A stretch of 64,000 nucleotides of DNA from Bacteroidales bacterium (GTDB lineage: Bacteria; Bacteroidota; Bacteroidia; Bacteroidales; UBA932), in assembly GCA_016282145.1 (NCBI GenBank), contig JAEEJZ010000021.1:1-64000 (forward strand), written 5' to 3'. The translations under genes were made by a program, and so were the position numbers. The notes beneath the pieces are model-generated. The model did no database searches. It saw nothing but the letters and a program-made list of their open reading frames with translations, and was not told the DNA's origin. Shown here piece after piece: positions 1 to 7,732 of this stretch; the stretch's first letter is position 1; each line of letters opens with the position of its first letter.

Positions 1-510
1 CTTCTCATCTACAATAGACGGCCTCAGCGATATGTCAACCCTGTCCTGGATGATTCCCCTGGGTCTGTATAGACTGTCACGTCTTCGTTTACGTCGCCCG
101 TGATACCTGAGGTTGCGAGCCATCTCGTCGTTGCCCCGGCGCTTCTCCTGCCAGATCCACCGGTAGATCGTCACCGCACATACCATCTCTTCCCCCTTTA
201 ACCGGAACCGACCGCAGATCTGCTCCGGACTGTACTGGCCATACACGATGAACCTCCTCACGGTCCGCTTCATCTCGTCGGTGAACTTCAGGTAGTGGCG
301 CCTGGTCTTCATCCTCCTTTCGTACTTCTTTTAAGCCAGTTGCCATCGGTACCGATGGTAGCAACGCCTATTGCAGTTCCTGCGAATCTCACGGCTCACT
401 GTACCCGTACTGACACCTATCACTTCACCTATCTCCCTTAAACTCATAGGTGTCTGCAGCAACACCTCTATCGTATATCGCTGCTCCTTTGTCAAATGCT
501 TGTATCCCAT
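1..510 (-). pseudogene. IS30-family transposase, partial, with an in-frame TAA at codon 60 (331-333)
   Basis: ATG at 508-510; the frame reads ...RRCYHRYRWQLA*KKYERRMKTRRHYLKFTDEMKRTVRRFIVYGQYSPEQICGRF... with homology continuing past the stop. Confidence 0.7.
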
Positions 511-590
511 CCTCGGTCGCTTTTTCTGGTTATGACAGTAAAGTTATCCTGTCATGCTTCAAAGCGTTGCACTTCAGAGTAGAATCCAGC
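1..590 (-). mobile_element. IS30-family insertion element, cut by the window edge; right end approximate
   Basis: Minus-strand reading gives an IS30-type HTH (MGYKHLTKEQRYTIEVLLQTPMSLREIGEVIGVSTGTVSREIRRNC) followed by typical IS30 transposase sequence; an AT-rich end with GTTGCACTTCAGAGTAGAATCC lies near 565-590. Confidence 0.75.
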
Positions 591-633
591 AGGAAATTTT
601 CAACCCAATAGCGAATTATTGAATTTAGTTTTA

Positions 634-641
634 TATATTTG
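634..641 (+). promoter_or_regulatory. Putative Bacteroidetes -7 box (TATATTTG) for the island operon
   Basis: TAnnTTTG match 16 nt before the ATG at 658. Confidence 0.5.
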
Positions 642-657
642 CAGAAAAAATGCAAAT

Positions 658-1386
658 ATGAAAAGCCAAAGCATGGTAATAATGGATTCTTATCAATTAA
701 AAGCAGGATTGACGCCGGCGGTAGTCAGCATGCTTCCATTATTCCCGATCCTCTTTTACTGTGTCCCGGACATAAACATTATAACTGATTTCGCTTTTTC
801 AATAATCATTATTTCTGCACTACTATATATATTAGCCTCAGTTTGCAGAACGTTGGGACGCGACAAAGAAAAGAAAATGTTCAAGTCCTGGGGTGGAAAA
901 CCGACAAGTGTGCTACTCAGACAAACAAATTCGATTATTGACGGCCATACGAAGGCCCGCTATTATTCAATGATTCAGATTCTTCTACCTGATCTTCATT
1001 TACCCACGAAATCAGATGAAGAAGCAGATTTGGAAAAAAGTGATGAAATCTATGACAGTGTGTCCAAATATCTTCGTGCTAACACCCGAGGCGCGGAGCA
1101 CCAGCTTCTCAATTATGAAAACGAAGAATATGGAATGTGGCGAAACATCTATGGATTGAAGTGTATTTCAATCTGGGTTGCAGCAATAGCTATTCCCATA
1201 TATGTTACTCTTATGCTTTTGGGGGTGATGTCACATCCTTTCTCCTGTTTCGGACTAGCTTTGTCCTTATGTGAAATCGCCTTTCAAAGTTTTGTAGTAA
1301 GAGAAAGTCTTATAAAGGTACACGCATTCAGATATGCCGAAAGATTGCTTGAAACATTGGACGCAAATAACAATAAACAATTATGA
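658..1386 (+). CDS. Predicted 4-TM membrane protein, first gene of the candidate defence operon
   Basis: ORF 619-1386; start moved to 658 because the -7 box is at 634-641. Two hydrophobic pairs near the N- and C-termini. ATGA overlap with the next gene. Confidence 0.65.
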   Translation: MKSQSMVIMDSYQLKAGLTPAVVSMLPLFPILFYCVPDINIITDFAFSIIIISALLYILASVCRTLGRDKEKKMFKSWGGKPTSVLLRQTNSIIDGHTKARYYSMIQILLPDLHLPTKSDEEADLEKSDEIYDSVSKYLRANTRGAEHQLLNYENEEYGMWRNIYGLKCISIWVAAIAIPIYVTLMLLGVMSHPFSCFGLALSLCEIAFQSFVVRESLIKVHAFRYAERLLETLDANNNKQL

Positions 1387-2672
1387 TACAGTACATTAAG
1401 ATAAAAAACTTCTTATCATTCAAAGACGAAGTTGTATTTAATTTCGAAGCCACAAAAGATAAAAAATACGAAGACTATCAGGTTGTAGAAATCGCGCCAG
1501 GAGTTAGAATTCTACGCATCGCCGTTGTGTATGGAGCAAATGCATCTGGGAAGACAAATCTTGTGTCTGCGATTGAATTCCTGAGGAATTTCTGGTTTCA
1601 ATATCTCGAAAACAAAGACCAACCTACTGGTGCTATCCCGTTCCTTCTGGCAAGTGAGACGCCAAATCAGCCATCTGAGTTTTCGATAGGATTCTACATC
1701 AGCCAGAAAAAATATATCTACAATCTCACCGTTAGCAATAATGTCGTATTGAATGAGAAATTGCTGATATATCCATCACAGCAGCCTGCCACCATTTATG
1801 AACGAGTTACCGTGGACGGTATATCACAAATCACATTTAATCCCAAGAGAGTTAAACTAGGACAGGCAGCGAAGGAGCAAATTTCGCTATATTGCCTCCA
1901 GAATGTCTCTGTTTTTGCTGCATACAACAAAGTAAATGTTGGGGCTGAAGAAATGGACACTGTTATGAACTGGGCTAAAGCTCATTTTACCTTCCAACAT
2001 CGAATGGGACTAGAAGACAATGTCGCATATACCGAAAGCATAATATCTCGAGACGAGAGCAAAAAGGGGGCAATTCTCAATTTCTTGCAAAGGGCTGATT
2101 ATAACATAACAGGAATAGACATCCAGCAAATTGAGAGAACAGTTCCAGATGAACTGATCCCATTGCTCATAAAAAGTTCTGAAGGAGTTCCTGTGTCAGA
2201 GATTGAACGTCTCAAAAGAGACAAGACAATCACTATGAACAAAGTTGATTTTGAGCATTGTATCACAAACGAGAACGGTGAGAAAGAATACTACAAACTG
2301 CCCAAAAATCTTCAGTCTGATGGAACAATAAGAACTTTTGGACTATCCGGAGTTATCGATCATGCGGTAGAAAGCAATTCCTTTATAACAATAGATGAGA
2401 TTGAGGATTCACTTCACCCTGCCCTTATTGAATTCATTGTGGAAGATTTCCTTAAGCACAAAGGCGAATCCCAGATGCTTGTCACTACACATTATGATGG
2501 ATTACTAGAAGCCGATGATTTGCTTCGCAACGATAGCATTTGGTTCACGAGCAAAAAGGAAAATGGTGCTACGGAGCTTTATTCTCTCGTTGATTTCAAA
2601 GGAATCAATCGTATCACATCCTTACAGAAGGCCTATCGTTTCGGGCAATTTGGTGCAATTCCTAATATATAG
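1383..2672 (+). CDS. AAA15/RloA-like (AbiLi-like) AAA family ATPase
   Basis: Walker A GANASGKTN, Walker B FITIDEIED, C-terminal TTHYDGLLE; typical N-terminus IKNFLSFKDEVVFNFEA. Confidence 0.85.
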   Translation: MIQYIKIKNFLSFKDEVVFNFEATKDKKYEDYQVVEIAPGVRILRIAVVYGANASGKTNLVSAIEFLRNFWFQYLENKDQPTGAIPFLLASETPNQPSEFSIGFYISQKKYIYNLTVSNNVVLNEKLLIYPSQQPATIYERVTVDGISQITFNPKRVKLGQAAKEQISLYCLQNVSVFAAYNKVNVGAEEMDTVMNWAKAHFTFQHRMGLEDNVAYTESIISRDESKKGAILNFLQRADYNITGIDIQQIERTVPDELIPLLIKSSEGVPVSEIERLKRDKTITMNKVDFEHCITNENGEKEYYKLPKNLQSDGTIRTFGLSGVIDHAVESNSFITIDEIEDSLHPALIEFIVEDFLKHKGESQMLVTTHYDGLLEADDLLRNDSIWFTSKKENGATELYSLVDFKGINRITSLQKAYRFGQFGAIPNI

Positions 2673-2675
2673 TCT

Positions 2676-3272
2676 ATGCCGAAACGTCAAATTCAAACAA
2701 GAAATCTGACCGGCAGTATATATATTGTCGGAGAAGGTATTACTGAGCAGTTCTATTTCACGCATCTGCGTCAGATAATGGGATATCGATGTACTATACG
2801 ACCAAGGTTCTTCGGGAACACAAGCATCAAAGAAATCCAGAAAAAAGTTGAAGAGTTGCTGTCGAATAGAGTATATGTAATTTGCGTGTTTGATGCCGAT
2901 GTCTCTGTTAGAGATGATGCTGAAAAGAAAAGACTTGCTGCCTTCATTAAGAAGCACAAAGACAAGAAAAACGTCTTGATTTGCAGCAGTTTACCATCCA
3001 TTGAATACTGGTTCCTTCTTCATTTTGAGAACAACCATTCTTATTTCAGGGATTCGAAATCAGCAGAAGATGCATTGAGAAAGCATCTTACCTCTTACAA
3101 GAAAAGCACTGAATATTTAGAGAAGGAAAAATGGGTACAAGAACTCTGCGCCGATAATAGGATAAGCTTCGCAACTGCTAACGCAAAAGTGTGCGACAAA
3201 GAAACGCATTCATATACAAATGTTTATAGAGCAATTGAAATCTTGGAAGATAAAAACAGTAAAAAAGTATGA
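2676..3272 (+). CDS. RloB-like (AbiLii-like) protein
   Basis: GEGITEQFYF, VFDADVSVRDD, SSLPSIEYWFLLHFE match the RloB family pattern; directly follows the RloA-like gene. Confidence 0.8.
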   Translation: MPKRQIQTRNLTGSIYIVGEGITEQFYFTHLRQIMGYRCTIRPRFFGNTSIKEIQKKVEELLSNRVYVICVFDADVSVRDDAEKKRLAAFIKKHKDKKNVLICSSLPSIEYWFLLHFENNHSYFRDSKSAEDALRKHLTSYKKSTEYLEKEKWVQELCADNRISFATANAKVCDKETHSYTNVYRAIEILEDKNSKKV

Positions 3273-4414
3273 GCCATAAGATAAAGTTTTACCCTGTAGG
3301 AAATGGGGACAATGTTTTGCTGAAACTCACTGATGGGTTCACTGCAATGTTTGATTGCCAGATACGCAAACCAGAGAAAAAAGATGATGGCACTGAAGTG
3401 TACGATGTGAAAAAGGACCTTATGGAAGAACTTCAAACAGTCAACGGTAAACCATTTGTTGACTTGTTTGTCAACTCTCATCCCCACGAGGACCACTGCC
3501 TTGGATATGATGCCAATTTTTATCACGGAGATCCTGATGACTATGGTGACACCAACAAGGAAAATGAAGAAATCATAATCGGCGAGCTTTGGGTGACTCA
3601 AAAGGTTTTCCAACTTAATCTGTGTGATGATGCCAATGCCATCAGGAATGAAGCGAACCGCCGTCTCAGATTATTTCGATCCGGCGATGCGAAAGCCGAC
3701 AAACTCGGCAACAGAATTCATATCATCGGGTACAATGACGAGGACAAGATTGAGGAAGGTATCCACTATATCCCAGGCTCAACCATCTATAAGATAAACG
3801 GCAAATACTTATCTGGATTGAATATTTTCATCCATGCACCATTAAAGAGCGACATTCAAACAAGTTGGGCGGATAAAGATGAAAACATTGCCAGCATTGT
3901 TATGCAGTTGAATATAAATTCAGAACAACGCGTTTCGAGAGTATTTATTTGTGGAGATGCCGACCATTATGTGTTTGAGCATATAATGGATATCTCTGAA
4001 GCAAAATCCAACGAGGATGCCCTCAAATGGGATATTTTGCTTGCTCCCCATCATTGTTCCTGGTCTTTCTTCAACGACACGCCCCAAAAAGATCATCCTG
4101 ATGTCGTCGACTCCGCGTCAAAATTTTTGGGATATGCAAATGAAGGAGCTCACATCGTATCATCATCGAACAAGATAGAAGATAATGACAACAACCCTCC
4201 TCATTTCCAAGCCCGCAAGCAATACATCAAAACGGTAACTGCTGAAAGGTTCAAGAATACAGCCATCAATGGTGGGGAGAAAAAGCCTCAGCCTATAGTC
4301 TATGAATTTGACTCAGACGGAATTACATTTAAACGTGCTCTTTCATATACGGGTACGACAACGATACTGGGCAGTTCCACTCCGCGTGCAGGTTTATGGA
4401 TGAAATCAAAATAG
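3269..4414 (+). CDS. Metallo-beta-lactamase-fold hydrolase (ComEC-type MBL domain)
   Basis: HPHEDH, GDADH and APHHCS motifs; ATGA overlap with the upstream gene. Confidence 0.85.
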   Translation: MSHKIKFYPVGNGDNVLLKLTDGFTAMFDCQIRKPEKKDDGTEVYDVKKDLMEELQTVNGKPFVDLFVNSHPHEDHCLGYDANFYHGDPDDYGDTNKENEEIIIGELWVTQKVFQLNLCDDANAIRNEANRRLRLFRSGDAKADKLGNRIHIIGYNDEDKIEEGIHYIPGSTIYKINGKYLSGLNIFIHAPLKSDIQTSWADKDENIASIVMQLNINSEQRVSRVFICGDADHYVFEHIMDISEAKSNEDALKWDILLAPHHCSWSFFNDTPQKDHPDVVDSASKFLGYANEGAHIVSSSNKIEDNDNNPPHFQARKQYIKTVTAERFKNTAINGGEKKPQPIVYEFDSDGITFKRALSYTGTTTILGSSTPRAGLWMKSK

Positions 4415-6615
4415 ATTTTGCGACTTACGAAGATATAGCTATCTCTGATTTACGCTTTCCACGTGCAAAGGAATTTGTACGTGCAGCTAGTTATGATTCT
4501 GAGATTTACAATGTCACAGGAGCAAAGCGTCACGGAAAAACCGAATACCTATTTCTTACTATTGCTGTTGACAAGCCTCAATACCCAGTAATAGATATTA
4601 GAGAATACGAAGATATTGCCATTGTTTTCGACGAAATAGAAACCGACTTTCCCATAGTGCATGCTTTGCGGCCTGACTTTCCGCAAGGAATTCCACATAC
4701 GAATATCAGGATGCACCCTGTATGGTTGTGCATTACAGAAGATTCGTTTGATGAAGTCAAGCACAGATTTACAGCGTCCCAGTTCCTTTACCAAATTAGA
4801 GAGTGGTTTAACCTTACAGCCAAAGGGAAGCTCCACAAAGATGACCAAGAATTAGAGCCGTTCTTATCAACATCAAAGTCAGTTGTTGTAAGCAAAGAGA
4901 GTCTTCAGGAAGAGATTACAAGCTTCGGCCTCAAGCCATACAATGATTATTCCGGCAAGCATTTATTCAAACTTGTTTCAGATAAAGAAGCAAAAACCAA
5001 ATATGTTTCTCTTCGGATAATTGCTGATCCTGTTGTCCATGGTGATATCAATTGGGATTTTTCTTCTTTATTAAATCTGGATAGCAGCCTCAAATATAAT
5101 AATGGCTGCACTATATTTTCCTTGCTATCAAACATCCTTTGCAATCAGGATATCGCTTCCGATGGAGATTCATACTCGGATGTCACAATTCTGTTTCTGT
5201 GTGATATCCCTCTGAAACGTTCAAATGCATCGATACCAGAGAAGGTTGACACTTTCTTTGTCAACACCGTTGAAACACTTAGAGACCTGGCTGTGAAGTC
5301 AGGATTATGGACCAAAGGCAATTCCGGTTACATCATTAACCCTATTACCCCGGCTATCAAAAAATATATTCTTGAACGTCCTATCCAACTGTTGTCGTGT
5401 ATGGAAGACTTTAGCCATTCATTTGCCGCAGAATGTAATGGAGCAACAGAGGACACTTGCTTACACACTATTATCGGAGCAGGTGCTCTTGGCTCGCAAG
5501 TATTGAATCTCTTATGTCGGACCGGTTTTGGGAAATGGATTGTCATTGACAATGATACATTATACCCACACAACTTGGCAAGGCACGAGCTCAACCGTGC
5601 CTGTATTGGATTCAATAAGGCTTTGGGCGTAGCCGTCGATATGAATAATCTTTTGGGAGACAACTCATTGTGTAAACCTATTTGTAAAAAAATATCGGAA
5701 GAAACAGTGTCGGATTCTGAAATCCTTGAAGCTTTCGCAAATTCAAAGGCAATTATCGACATTTCCACTTCCATAGCTGTAGAACGCATTCTCGCATCAG
5801 ACGTTGACAAGAAAATCAAGACAAGAAGAATCTCCGCTTTCCTGAACCCGTCAGGCAAAAGTCTAATAATCCTTGCAGAAGACACAGCAAGAGTCCACAA
5901 ACTTGATTTGCTTGAGATGGAATATTACAGAATGATTAATGAAACTCCTGAACTTCACGACCATCTTTTCCTCAAGAAAGACTCTAAAATAAGATACAGG
6001 AGGAATAGTTGCCGGGAGTTATCCGTAAAAATCAATAATGCGGACGTGGCTCAGTGTGCCGCCATTGCTGCCAAGGTGCTTCCTTCAATAATTCATTCTC
6101 AAGAGGCAAGCATCTCCTTATGGCAAATTGATGATGAATCGTGTACAACCAAGTTTTATCACAAAGCCCCAAGTTCTTGGACACGTTTCTCAACTAATGG
6201 ATATTCAGTTTATATCTGCGATAGGTTGATTAATGAGATTCAGGCCGAACGGAGTAAATACTTACCAAATGAAACTGGAGGGGTACTGATAGGATCTATT
6301 GATATCCCTAGAAAGACAATATACATATTTGATAGCATATATGCCGAGAATAGTGTAAACGAGCGAGAGTATTTCATACGAGGTGATAAGACTGTTTTAA
6401 AGCAGTATGAAGAATATCGTGAAGTGACTGATGGGCAAATATGCTATGTCGGAGAATGGCACTCACATCCGGATAGATGTCCTACAAAGCCAAGTTCATT
6501 AGATATGAAACTTCTTGTACATCTTACTGAACATATGGCACCAGATGGCCTTCCTGTCGTGATGATTATTGCAGGAAAAAGGAGACTGACTGTAATTTGC
6601 GGAATTGAACAATAG
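4396..6615 (+). CDS. E2-like + E1/ThiF-like + JAB/JAMM triple-domain protein
   Basis: E2-like HPVWLC (Cys112) with ...WFNLTAKGKLHKDDQELEPF; E1 Rossmann IIGAGALGSQVLN with VIDNDTLYPHNLARHEL and SCREL (Cys539); JAMM GGVLIG...GEWHSHPD...SSLD. Confidence 0.85.
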   Translation: MDEIKIDFATYEDIAISDLRFPRAKEFVRAASYDSEIYNVTGAKRHGKTEYLFLTIAVDKPQYPVIDIREYEDIAIVFDEIETDFPIVHALRPDFPQGIPHTNIRMHPVWLCITEDSFDEVKHRFTASQFLYQIREWFNLTAKGKLHKDDQELEPFLSTSKSVVVSKESLQEEITSFGLKPYNDYSGKHLFKLVSDKEAKTKYVSLRIIADPVVHGDINWDFSSLLNLDSSLKYNNGCTIFSLLSNILCNQDIASDGDSYSDVTILFLCDIPLKRSNASIPEKVDTFFVNTVETLRDLAVKSGLWTKGNSGYIINPITPAIKKYILERPIQLLSCMEDFSHSFAAECNGATEDTCLHTIIGAGALGSQVLNLLCRTGFGKWIVIDNDTLYPHNLARHELNRACIGFNKALGVAVDMNNLLGDNSLCKPICKKISEETVSDSEILEAFANSKAIIDISTSIAVERILASDVDKKIKTRRISAFLNPSGKSLIILAEDTARVHKLDLLEMEYYRMINETPELHDHLFLKKDSKIRYRRNSCRELSVKINNADVAQCAAIAAKVLPSIIHSQEASISLWQIDDESCTTKFYHKAPSSWTRFSTNGYSVYICDRLINEIQAERSKYLPNETGGVLIGSIDIPRKTIYIFDSIYAENSVNEREYFIRGDKTVLKQYEEYREVTDGQICYVGEWHSHPDRCPTKPSSLDMKLLVHLTEHMAPDGLPVVMIIAGKRRLTVICGIEQ

Positions 6616-6906
6616 TAGTTCAAGGGAACAACCAATAAAAGCCCAAGATTGGGATAAACTAGGTAAATGTTATATCAGCCTTGCTGCTTATGTTCTTCGG
6701 GTGTACAGGAAAAAATATTTCTAGTTCAGACTACTTGGTTGCAGCAGGAAGTCGAGCAGAGTGATATTTTGGATGCTGTTGTCATCATCCAAGATGAGGC
6801 CGGAGGGTTAAAGATATTGACGAACGATGGACCTAGATGGCAGCATTACCGTAAACATGGTTTTATTTGTTTATCCAGGACAACAACATATCTGATTCTT
6901 GTATAA
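6605..6906 (+). other. Possible small frameshifted or decaying ORF after the E2-E1-JAB gene
   Basis: Frame from TTG 6605 (LNNSSSREQPIKAQDWDKLGKCYISLAAYVLRVYRKKYF*) stops at 6722-6724; a -1 shift at the A6 run 6710-6715 continues as KIFLVQTTWLQQEVEQSDILDAVVIIQDEAGGLKILTNDGP... Confidence 0.3.
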
Positions 6907-7258: not shown

Positions 7259-7333
7259 GAGGTCCCGGGGCCGCAGCCGGATAGCATTTTTCAAAACTAT
7301 TGATTACTTTTGGCAAGCGGAACAGGACATCTG

Positions 7334-7732
7334 ATGAAAAGCATAGAAGTCGTAGCGGCCATCCTACGCAAGGGAGACCGGATTTTTGCTACCCAGCGGG
7401 GATACGGGGATTTCAAAGACTATTGGGAATTCCCCGGCGGCAAGATGGAGGCCGGGGAAACGCCGGAACAGGCGCTCGTCCGAGAAATCCGCGAGGAACT
7501 GGATGCGGAGATCCGTATCGACAAAATCCTCTCCACTATCGAATGGGATTATTCCAATTTCCACCTCACGATGCACTGCTACGTCTGCAGCCTCGTTTCA
7601 AATGAACTGCACCTGAACGAGCACGAGGCGGCCAGGTGGCTAAACAAAGAAGAAATCCACTCCGTCAACTGGCTCCCGGCGGACGACCAGATCCTCCCCC
7701 TCATCGTGAAGGAACTGGCACAAGTATCTTAA
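7334..7732 (+). CDS. NUDIX/MutT-like nucleoside triphosphate pyrophosphohydrolase
   Basis: Nudix box GGKMEAGETPEQALVREIREEL; start MKSIEVVAAIL. Confidence 0.9.
   Translation: MKSIEVVAAILRKGDRIFATQRGYGDFKDYWEFPGGKMEAGETPEQALVREIREELDAEIRIDKILSTIEWDYSNFHLTMHCYVCSLVSNELHLNEHEAARWLNKEEIHSVNWLPADDQILPLIVKELAQVS

What the first reader, a model, noticed from the sequence alone, without database searches (positions are those of the whole stretch)
658..6615. Compact five-gene operon: 4-TM protein, RloA/RloB-like pair, MBL hydrolase and E2-E1-JAB protein
Seen: five same-strand ORFs joined by ATGA overlaps (1383-1386, 3269-3272), a 3-nt gap (2673-2675) and a 19-nt overlap (4396-4414), with one putative promoter before gene 1 and AT-rich composition against a GC-rich backbone. 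Known: RloA/RloB-like (AbiL-type) pairs are linked to phage exclusion, and bacterial E1/E2/JAB modules, some next to MBL proteins, are described from comparative genomics and in antiphage operons such as Bil and CBASS Cap2/Cap3. Inference: joining both modules with a 4-TM protein in one coupled operon suggests a single antiphage system with sensor, conjugation and effector parts. I cannot tell from sequence alone whether this exact five-gene layout has been reported.
Basis: partly seen in the sequence, partly recalled or inferred. Interest (0 to 1): 0.9.

Follow-up and report, generated by a model that had tools for sequence, protein, structure and literature searches.

The report
Antiphage-like operon with ubiquitin-style machinery
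A Bacteroidales genome carries a five-gene mobile cassette that joins a recently catalogued bacterial "ubiquitin-like" antiphage module to an AbiL pair and a membrane protein, and comparison with relatives suggests that the module's own metallo-hydrolase is the protein it attaches to targets, through a conserved glycine tail.

Summary
In detail: five tightly coupled, intact ORFs at 658-6615. The last two genes are not new. They exceed NCBIfam's cut-offs for the "anti-phage 6A-MBL system" (MBL enzyme; fused E2-E1-JAB), described as type 6a by Iyer et al. 2006. Genes 2-3 are AbiLi and AbiLii/RloB. Gene 1 is a 4-TM family without a Pfam, NCBIfam or PADLOC model; it recurs beside 6A-MBL cores in 13 lineages and beside a paralogous MBL in two-gene loci, so it is probably the membrane effector (other 6A-MBL loci use a patatin phospholipase). 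The five genes form one mobile unit (93-96% identical in four MAGs, unrelated flanks, all genes under purifying selection). AbiL adjacency recurs in only two other lineages, so that pair is a recurrent but optional addition. The most informative result: every MBL paired with E2-E1-JAB ends in a flexible Ala/Gly/Ser tail with a terminal Gly motif (PRAG, xHG, xQG or GYG), absent from MBLs without E2-E1-JAB. This predicts that the MBL is conjugated through its C-terminus, like the cyclase in type II CBASS, with JAB maturing or removing it. Antiphage activity, MBL chemistry and the conjugation itself are untested.

The parts
1..515 (-). Degenerate IS30-family-like transposase (HTH end) at the contig edge, left of the cassette
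   Evidence: reverse-frame reading MGYKHLTKEQRYTIEVLLQTPMSLREIGEVIGVSTGTVSREIRR..., with an internal stop; family named from general knowledge
590..6631 (+). The mobile unit: homology to three other MAGs starts and stops here, flanks unrelated
   Evidence: blastn; edges compared
634..641 (+). TATATTTG, a match to the Bacteroidetes -7 promoter box TAnnTTTG
   Evidence: sequence; same region conserved in the relatives
635..659 (.). Perfect 9-bp inverted repeat ATATTTGCA-N7-TGCAAATAT overlapping the -7 box and the start codon; possible operator
   Evidence: arms kept in all four cassettes
658..1386 (+). g1, 242 aa 4-TM protein with a conserved linker of about 100 residues between TM2 and TM3; proposed membrane effector
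   Evidence: hydropathy, family alignment, recurrent neighbour of MBLs; no Pfam/NCBIfam/PADLOC model
1383..2672 (+). g2, AbiLi/RloA-like ATPase (AAA_21), Walker A GANASGKT at residues 51-58
   Evidence: PADLOC AbiLi 2.7e-72, Pfam AAA_21 4.6e-30
2676..3272 (+). g3, AbiLii/RloB-like protein with TOPRIM-like conserved acids E20, E24, D73, D75
   Evidence: Pfam RloB 1e-22, PADLOC AbiLii 3.6e-21; conservation over 28 sequences
3269..4414 (+). g4, 6A-MBL metallo-beta-lactamase-fold enzyme, 381 aa
   Evidence: NCBIfam NF058524 348.5 bits, cut-off 220; closest solved relative the ComEC MBL domain
4340..4411 (+). Flexible C-terminal tail of the MBL (residues 358-381)
   Evidence: pLDDT below 50 over 358-381; Ala/Gly/Ser-rich tail in all E2E1JAB-linked MBLs
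4382..4393 (+). Proposed conjugation motif PRAG (residues 372-375); the following LWMKSK would have to be trimmed
4396..6615 (+). g5, fused E2-E1-JAB protein, 739 aa
   Evidence: NCBIfam NF058523 513.6 bits, cut-off 320; Prok-E2_A, ThiF, Prok-JAB
4729..4731 (+). E2 catalytic Cys112 codon
   Evidence: C in 37/37 homologues
6010..6012 (+). E1 Cys539 codon (probable E1 catalytic cysteine)
   Evidence: C in 37/37; role inferred
6226..6579 (+). JAB (JAMM) peptidase domain; E626, H689, H691, S700, D703
   Evidence: all invariant in 37/37

Best explanation
The cassette is a composite 6A-MBL antiphage system. Proposed mechanism: the E1 domain adenylates the C-terminal glycine of the MBL (PRAG, after the JAB domain trims LWMKSK), the E2 cysteine transfers the MBL to a lysine of a target, and JAB can remove it, as Cap2/Cap3 do with the cyclase in type II CBASS. 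Conjugation sets the state or location of the MBL, and phage infection shifts it. The MBL (a ComEC-like metallo-hydrolase) then, directly or through its product, releases the 4-TM membrane protein, which disrupts the membrane in the way patatin phospholipase or other TM proteins would in sister loci. The AbiLi ATPase with its TOPRIM-like AbiLii adds a second, sensor-plus-nuclease arm that is co-transcribed here. Shown: gene identities, intact catalytic residues, the tail and its co-occurrence with E2-E1-JAB, the 4-TM/MBL partnership, mobility and purifying selection. Inferred: antiphage function, conjugation, effector role, cross-talk with AbiL.
For: Family membership over cut-off. E2/E1/JAMM residues invariant in 37/37. 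All 39 E2E1JAB-linked MBLs with a complete C-terminus end in an Ala/Gly/Ser-rich tail whose last Gly is 0-6 residues from the end. In 29 non-redundant tails this Gly is on average 1.79 residues from the end against 5.18 +/- 0.86 for shuffled tails (0 of 5000), and the four residues before it carry 5.98 bits against at most 5.84 in 5000 shuffles. Ten MBL2 paralogues (PADLOC PDC-M48B type) lack the tail, Ala/Gly/Ser 0.20 against 0.46, p = 8e-6. The RAG motif is kept with five Arg, four Ala and three Gly codons, so selection acts on the protein and not on the downstream ribosome site. Motif class follows the E2-E1-JAB tree with the minimum number of changes. The tail is disordered in the model. 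In type II CBASS the cyclase's terminal Ala/Gly is conjugated and mutating it abolishes immunity (PMC11153139). No Ub-like protein or CD-NTase is in the operon. 4-TM gene beside 6A cores in 13 lineages and beside MBL2 without E2-E1-JAB in Bacillus, Rhodococcus, Staphylococcus, Burkholderia and Curtobacterium. Purifying selection on all five genes.
Against: No experiment. MBL and E2-E1-JAB share a history, so motif class following the tree is expected even without contact. The fixed tail could be a docking linker rather than a conjugation site. AbiL is next to the core in only 3 lineages, on long separate branches, so functional integration is weakly supported outside the window's own cassette. 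The 4-TM model is poor (pLDDT 58) and Foldseek found nothing. The MBL substrate is unknown. The NCBIfam name says what members are called, not that this one was tested.
Confidence: 0.6

Rival explanations
1. Two independent defence systems, AbiL (g2-g3) and 6A-MBL with its 4-TM effector (g1, g4, g5), were brought together in one operon for shared regulation and mobility, without a joint mechanism.
For: AbiLi mostly occurs without 6A-MBL (53 places in 42 of 249 Bacteroidota genomes); the 6A-linked AbiLi proteins are three separate lineages; most 6A loci lack AbiL.
Against: AbiL is inserted between the 4-TM gene and the MBL with translational coupling on both sides, and this order is kept in four MAGs with every gene under purifying selection; AbiL adjacency recurs twice elsewhere (L038, L056), above a rough background of under 0.1% per locus, though defence islands inflate this.
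Confidence: 0.4
2. The MBL tail is a non-covalent docking or localisation peptide for the E2-E1-JAB protein or the membrane, and the conjugated substrate is something else.
For: A conserved C-terminal motif on a flexible linker also fits docking; many tails carry 1-6 residues after the Gly and would need trimming.
Against: The conserved position is a terminal or near-terminal Gly in every clade, as E1 adenylation would need; 11 of 29 tails end exactly at the Gly; no other protein of the operon ends in Gly, and a JAB domain able to trim is always fused in.
Confidence: 0.25
3. The 4-TM protein is a sensor or membrane anchor for the MBL, and killing is done by the MBL (a ComEC-like nuclease) or by AbiLii.
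For: The MBL's closest solved relative is the ComEC hydrolase domain; RloB keeps TOPRIM-like acids; L038 holds both patatin and 4-TM.
Against: Other 6A loci place patatin, DUF6338 or unrelated TM proteins in the same slot, the usual pattern of exchangeable membrane effectors.
Confidence: 0.3
4. The system is not for phage defence but for competition between mobile elements or a stress response.
For: Relatives are frequent on conjugative plasmids and none was found in the phage collection.
Against: AbiL and 6A-MBL are both listed as antiphage families, and relatives sit beside restriction-modification genes.
Confidence: 0.1

Closest known systems
6A-MBL anti-phage system (NCBIfam NF058523/NF058524); type 6a operon of Iyer et al. 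2006 (PMC1779556)
   Same: MBL gene followed by a fused E2-E1-JAB gene, both over the curated cut-offs
   Different: Here 4-TM and the AbiL pair precede the core in the same coupled operon and there is no patatin; Iyer describes usually two genes, and many Bacteroidota relatives carry MBL + E2-E1-JAB + patatin
AbiL (AbiLi/AbiLii), alias RloA/RloB
   Same: Both proteins detected, adjacent and in order
   Different: Normally a free-standing pair; here embedded between a 4-TM gene and the 6A-MBL core
Type II CBASS (Cap2 E2-E1, Cap3 JAB, CD-NTase)
   Same: E2-E1 and JAB activities; partner enzyme upstream with a conserved terminal Gly/Ala; membrane or phospholipase effectors
   Different: MBL instead of CD-NTase, JAB fused to E2-E1, residues often present after the Gly
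Bil operon
   Same: E1, E2 and JAB used in phage defence
   Different: No Ub-like protein here; single fused enzyme
PADLOC candidate PDC-M48 (PDC-M48B is an MBL)
   Same: Its MBL family is the MBL2 that pairs with 4-TM homologues in two-gene loci
   Different: The window MBL is a different branch with a tail and an E2-E1-JAB partner

Membership tests
6A-MBL system | MBL enzyme over NF058524 cut-off | tested here: met
   348.5 against 220 bits
6A-MBL system | Fused E2-E1-JAB over NF058523 cut-off, next to the MBL | tested here: met
   513.6 against 320 bits; 19-nt overlap
6A-MBL system | Intact E2, E1 and JAMM catalytic residues | tested here: met
   C112, GxGxxG, C539, E626/H689/H691/S700/D703 in 37/37
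6A-MBL system | Patatin third gene (frequent in Bacteroidota, not defining) | tested here: not met
   no patatin in the operon; present in L035-L040 and L052
6A-MBL system | Protection against phage | not testable with these tools
   needs plaque assays
AbiL | AbiLi ATPase | tested here: met
   PADLOC 2.7e-72; Walker A GANASGKT
AbiL | AbiLii/RloB immediately downstream | tested here: met
   PADLOC 3.6e-21, Pfam RloB 1e-22; 3-nt gap
AbiL | Phage exclusion | not testable with these tools
   needs experiment
Type II CBASS | CD-NTase gene in the operon | tested here: not met
   none of the five proteins matches a nucleotidyltransferase family
Type II CBASS | Partner enzyme with conserved C-terminal Ala/Gly tail | tested here: met
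   tail on the MBL instead of a cyclase; likeness of mechanism, not membership
Bil | Ubiquitin-like protein | tested here: not met
   no Ub-like domain found in the five genes
PARIS | AriA ATPase with AriB TOPRIM nuclease | tested here: not met
   AriA model matches only at the generic AAA_21 level (9e-29, far weaker than AbiLi) and AriB is not hit; g3 is RloB/AbiLii

The most novel reading that the evidence does not exclude
6A-MBL systems are 'MBL-ylation' systems: a whole metallo-hydrolase acts as the ubiquitin-like modifier, matured by JAB at a conserved Gly and attached to targets by E2-E1. In this cassette the targets include the AbiL proteins or the 4-TM effector, making one integrated five-gene sensor-conjugation-effector machine.
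Probability: 0.3. Interest if true: 0.85.

Novelty: new variant of a known kind. Interest (0 to 1): 0.62.

Why it matters
Bacterial E1-E2-JAB enzymes are thought to be antecedents of the eukaryotic ubiquitin system, but type 6a operons have no visible modifier, so what they conjugate has been open since 2006 as far as the open literature searched here shows. The tail found here gives a specific answer (the MBL) and a single-residue test (Gly375). The 4-TM family and its two-gene MBL2 loci add an unmodelled candidate effector family, and the composite cassette shows how AbiL and 6A-MBL modules can be combined.

Tried and rejected
E2-E1-JAB in viral contigs: nothing; with an MBL profile, five viral contigs. 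MBL in phages: no match. 4-TM profile too diverged for a contig scan. 4-TM structure: low confidence, Foldseek meaningless; PDB profile hits weak and spurious. The 239-aa TM protein of Burkholderia and Acinetobacter loci as a remote 4-TM homologue: rejected, hhalign probability 0.7%. Emticicia "ATP-binding protein" upstream of the MBL as AbiLi: rejected, no AbiLi match. AAA ATPases near L052, L069, L072 and L083 match the AbiLi profile only weakly and were not counted as AbiL. PRAG as a by-product of the downstream ribosome site: rejected by codon variety. Open-access searches for "6A-MBL", for MBL with E1/E2 and CBASS, and for AbiL mechanism gave nothing beyond Iyer 2006 and background papers; subscription papers and preprints were not searchable. 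A search centred on a plasmid locus is not accepted, so phyla other than Bacteroidota were sampled only through plasmids and viral contigs.
Full report
Observation. The E2 cysteine and JAMM residues are intact and invariant in 37 of 37 homologues.

One mobile unit. Three public MAGs (goat reticulum, goat omasum, horse faeces) carry the same gene order at 93-96% DNA identity. Homology starts at window 589-597 in all three and ends at 6625-6631 in the two whose contig reaches that far; the flanks are unrelated. The fourth copy (L004) is cut off by its contig end inside the MBL. In the window a degenerate IS30-like transposase lies to the left at the contig edge. There are no stops in any copy, and dN/dS between diverged copies is 0.02-0.24 for all genes, lowest (0.02-0.04) for AbiLi. 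dS differs strongly between genes in the same pair of MAGs (window against L002: 0.35 for g1, 0.01 for g4), so copies have recombined.

Gene identities. g4 and g5 exceed NCBIfam cut-offs for the anti-phage 6A-MBL system. The core was described by Iyer et al. 2006 as type 6a, an MBL next to a triple-module E2-E1-JAB protein, usually as two genes and without a named modifier (PMC1779556). g2-g3 are AbiLi/AbiLii. g3 keeps TOPRIM-like acids E20, E24, D73 and D75 over 28 sequences. g1 has no model in Pfam, NCBIfam or PADLOC.

What relatives show. Neighbourhoods of about 36 distinct 6A-MBL loci from Bacteroidota genomes, plasmids of several phyla and viral contigs were annotated. Most with complete flanks carry a membrane-acting or multi-TM partner: patatin (L035-L040, L052), the g1 4-TM family (window, L038, L042, L046, L048, L049, L055, L056, L069, L075, L076, L079, L084), DUF6338 (L043), an unrelated 3-4 TM protein of 211-247 aa (L043, L054, L082, L083), or a short TM protein next to a divergent WYL regulator (L050, L080, L081, L085). 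The partners look exchangeable, as effectors in CBASS are. The 4-TM family also pairs with a different MBL (MBL2, PADLOC PDC-M48B) in loci with no E2-E1-JAB: Staphylococcus, Bacillus, Rhodococcus, Burkholderia, Curtobacterium. So MBL plus 4-TM may be the basic unit and E2-E1-JAB an added control layer (inference).

AbiL. AbiLi occurs in 42 of 249 Bacteroidota genomes, 53 places. None of the 30 fetched AbiLi loci holds a 4-TM gene within 1.5 kb, and only the one of G191 (L112, the same place as L038) shows the 6A core. Among 6A loci AbiL is adjacent in the window cassette, in L038 (same strand, directly upstream) and in Rhizobium leguminosarum L056 (upstream, across a divergent WYL/nucleotidyltransferase pair). 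Two of about 18 Bacteroidota loci is far above a rough random expectation of under 0.1% per locus (53 places in 249 genomes of a few Mb, within 5 kb either side), but defence islands raise the background, and the three AbiLi lineages are deeply separate. AbiL is therefore a recurrent, optional neighbour, most tightly integrated in this cassette.

The tail. NF058524 ends at MBL residue 351 of 381. Beyond it every MBL with an E2-E1-JAB partner has a tail of 23-44 residues, rich in Ala/Gly/Ser, with a last Gly 0-6 residues from the end. Motifs fall in classes: RAG (mostly PRAG), xHG, xQG/TG, GYG. The linker varies in length and sequence while the end is fixed. Shuffling the 29 non-redundant tails never reproduces the position of the Gly or the information before it. 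MBL2 paralogues have no such tail. Codon variety excludes a ribosome-site artefact. Motif class needs only the minimum of four changes on the E2-E1-JAB tree (shuffled mean 14.9); this fits co-evolution but is also expected from shared descent. The AlphaFold model gives pLDDT below 50 over residues 358-381. In type II CBASS, cyclase tails are conserved, end in Ala or Gly, are conjugated to lysines by Cap2, and the mutation A331E abolishes immunity (PMC11153139). By analogy the MBL is the conjugated protein of type 6a systems. In the window LWMKSK follows the Gly and overlaps the start of g5, so the fused JAB would have to trim it, as ubiquitin precursors are trimmed (general knowledge).

MBL chemistry. 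Sequence profile and fold both point to the ComEC MBL domain; ComEC is a DNA-uptake protein whose MBL domain is regarded as a nuclease (general knowledge). Nuclease activity is one guess; the substrate is open.

Verdict. Known core, known AbiL pair, new composite arrangement with an unmodelled candidate effector family, and a specific, cheaply testable prediction about what type 6a E2-E1-JAB enzymes conjugate. My confidence that the locus is a 6A-MBL variant is about 0.95; that the MBL tail is the E1/E2 substrate, about 0.7; that 4-TM is the effector, about 0.6; that AbiL is functionally integrated, about 0.5.

Noticed in passing
window 635-659: Perfect 9-bp inverted repeat over the -7 box and start codon, kept in all four cassettes; possible operator of an unknown repressor (no WYL gene in this cassette).
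   Followed up: partly
window 1-515: IS30-like transposase remnant at the contig start; two relatives (L003, L004) also have contigs that begin close to the cassette's left edge, which suggests repeats there.
   Followed up: partly
window 7310-7732: NUDIX (MutT-like) protein matching PADLOC candidate PDC-S07 at 3.9e-49 just after the cassette; probably a housekeeping MutT.
   Followed up: no
L044, L045, L047, L053, L057: Two-gene loci of a PDC-M48B-type MBL (MBL2) with a g1-family 4-TM protein, without E2-E1-JAB, in Bacillota, Actinomycetota and Burkholderia: a candidate minimal defence pair.
   Followed up: partly
L050, L080, L081, L085 (Enterobacteria, Vibrio, viral contig): Gammaproteobacterial 6A-MBL loci keep a divergent WYL regulator followed by a short 2-3 TM protein, a likely alternative effector. 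tblastn with the Sphingobium MBL finds the family on many Klebsiella and E. coli plasmids.
   Followed up: partly
window and L002-L004: dS varies between genes of the cassette for the same genome pair (about 0.01 to 0.35), a sign of recombination between cassettes.
   Followed up: partly
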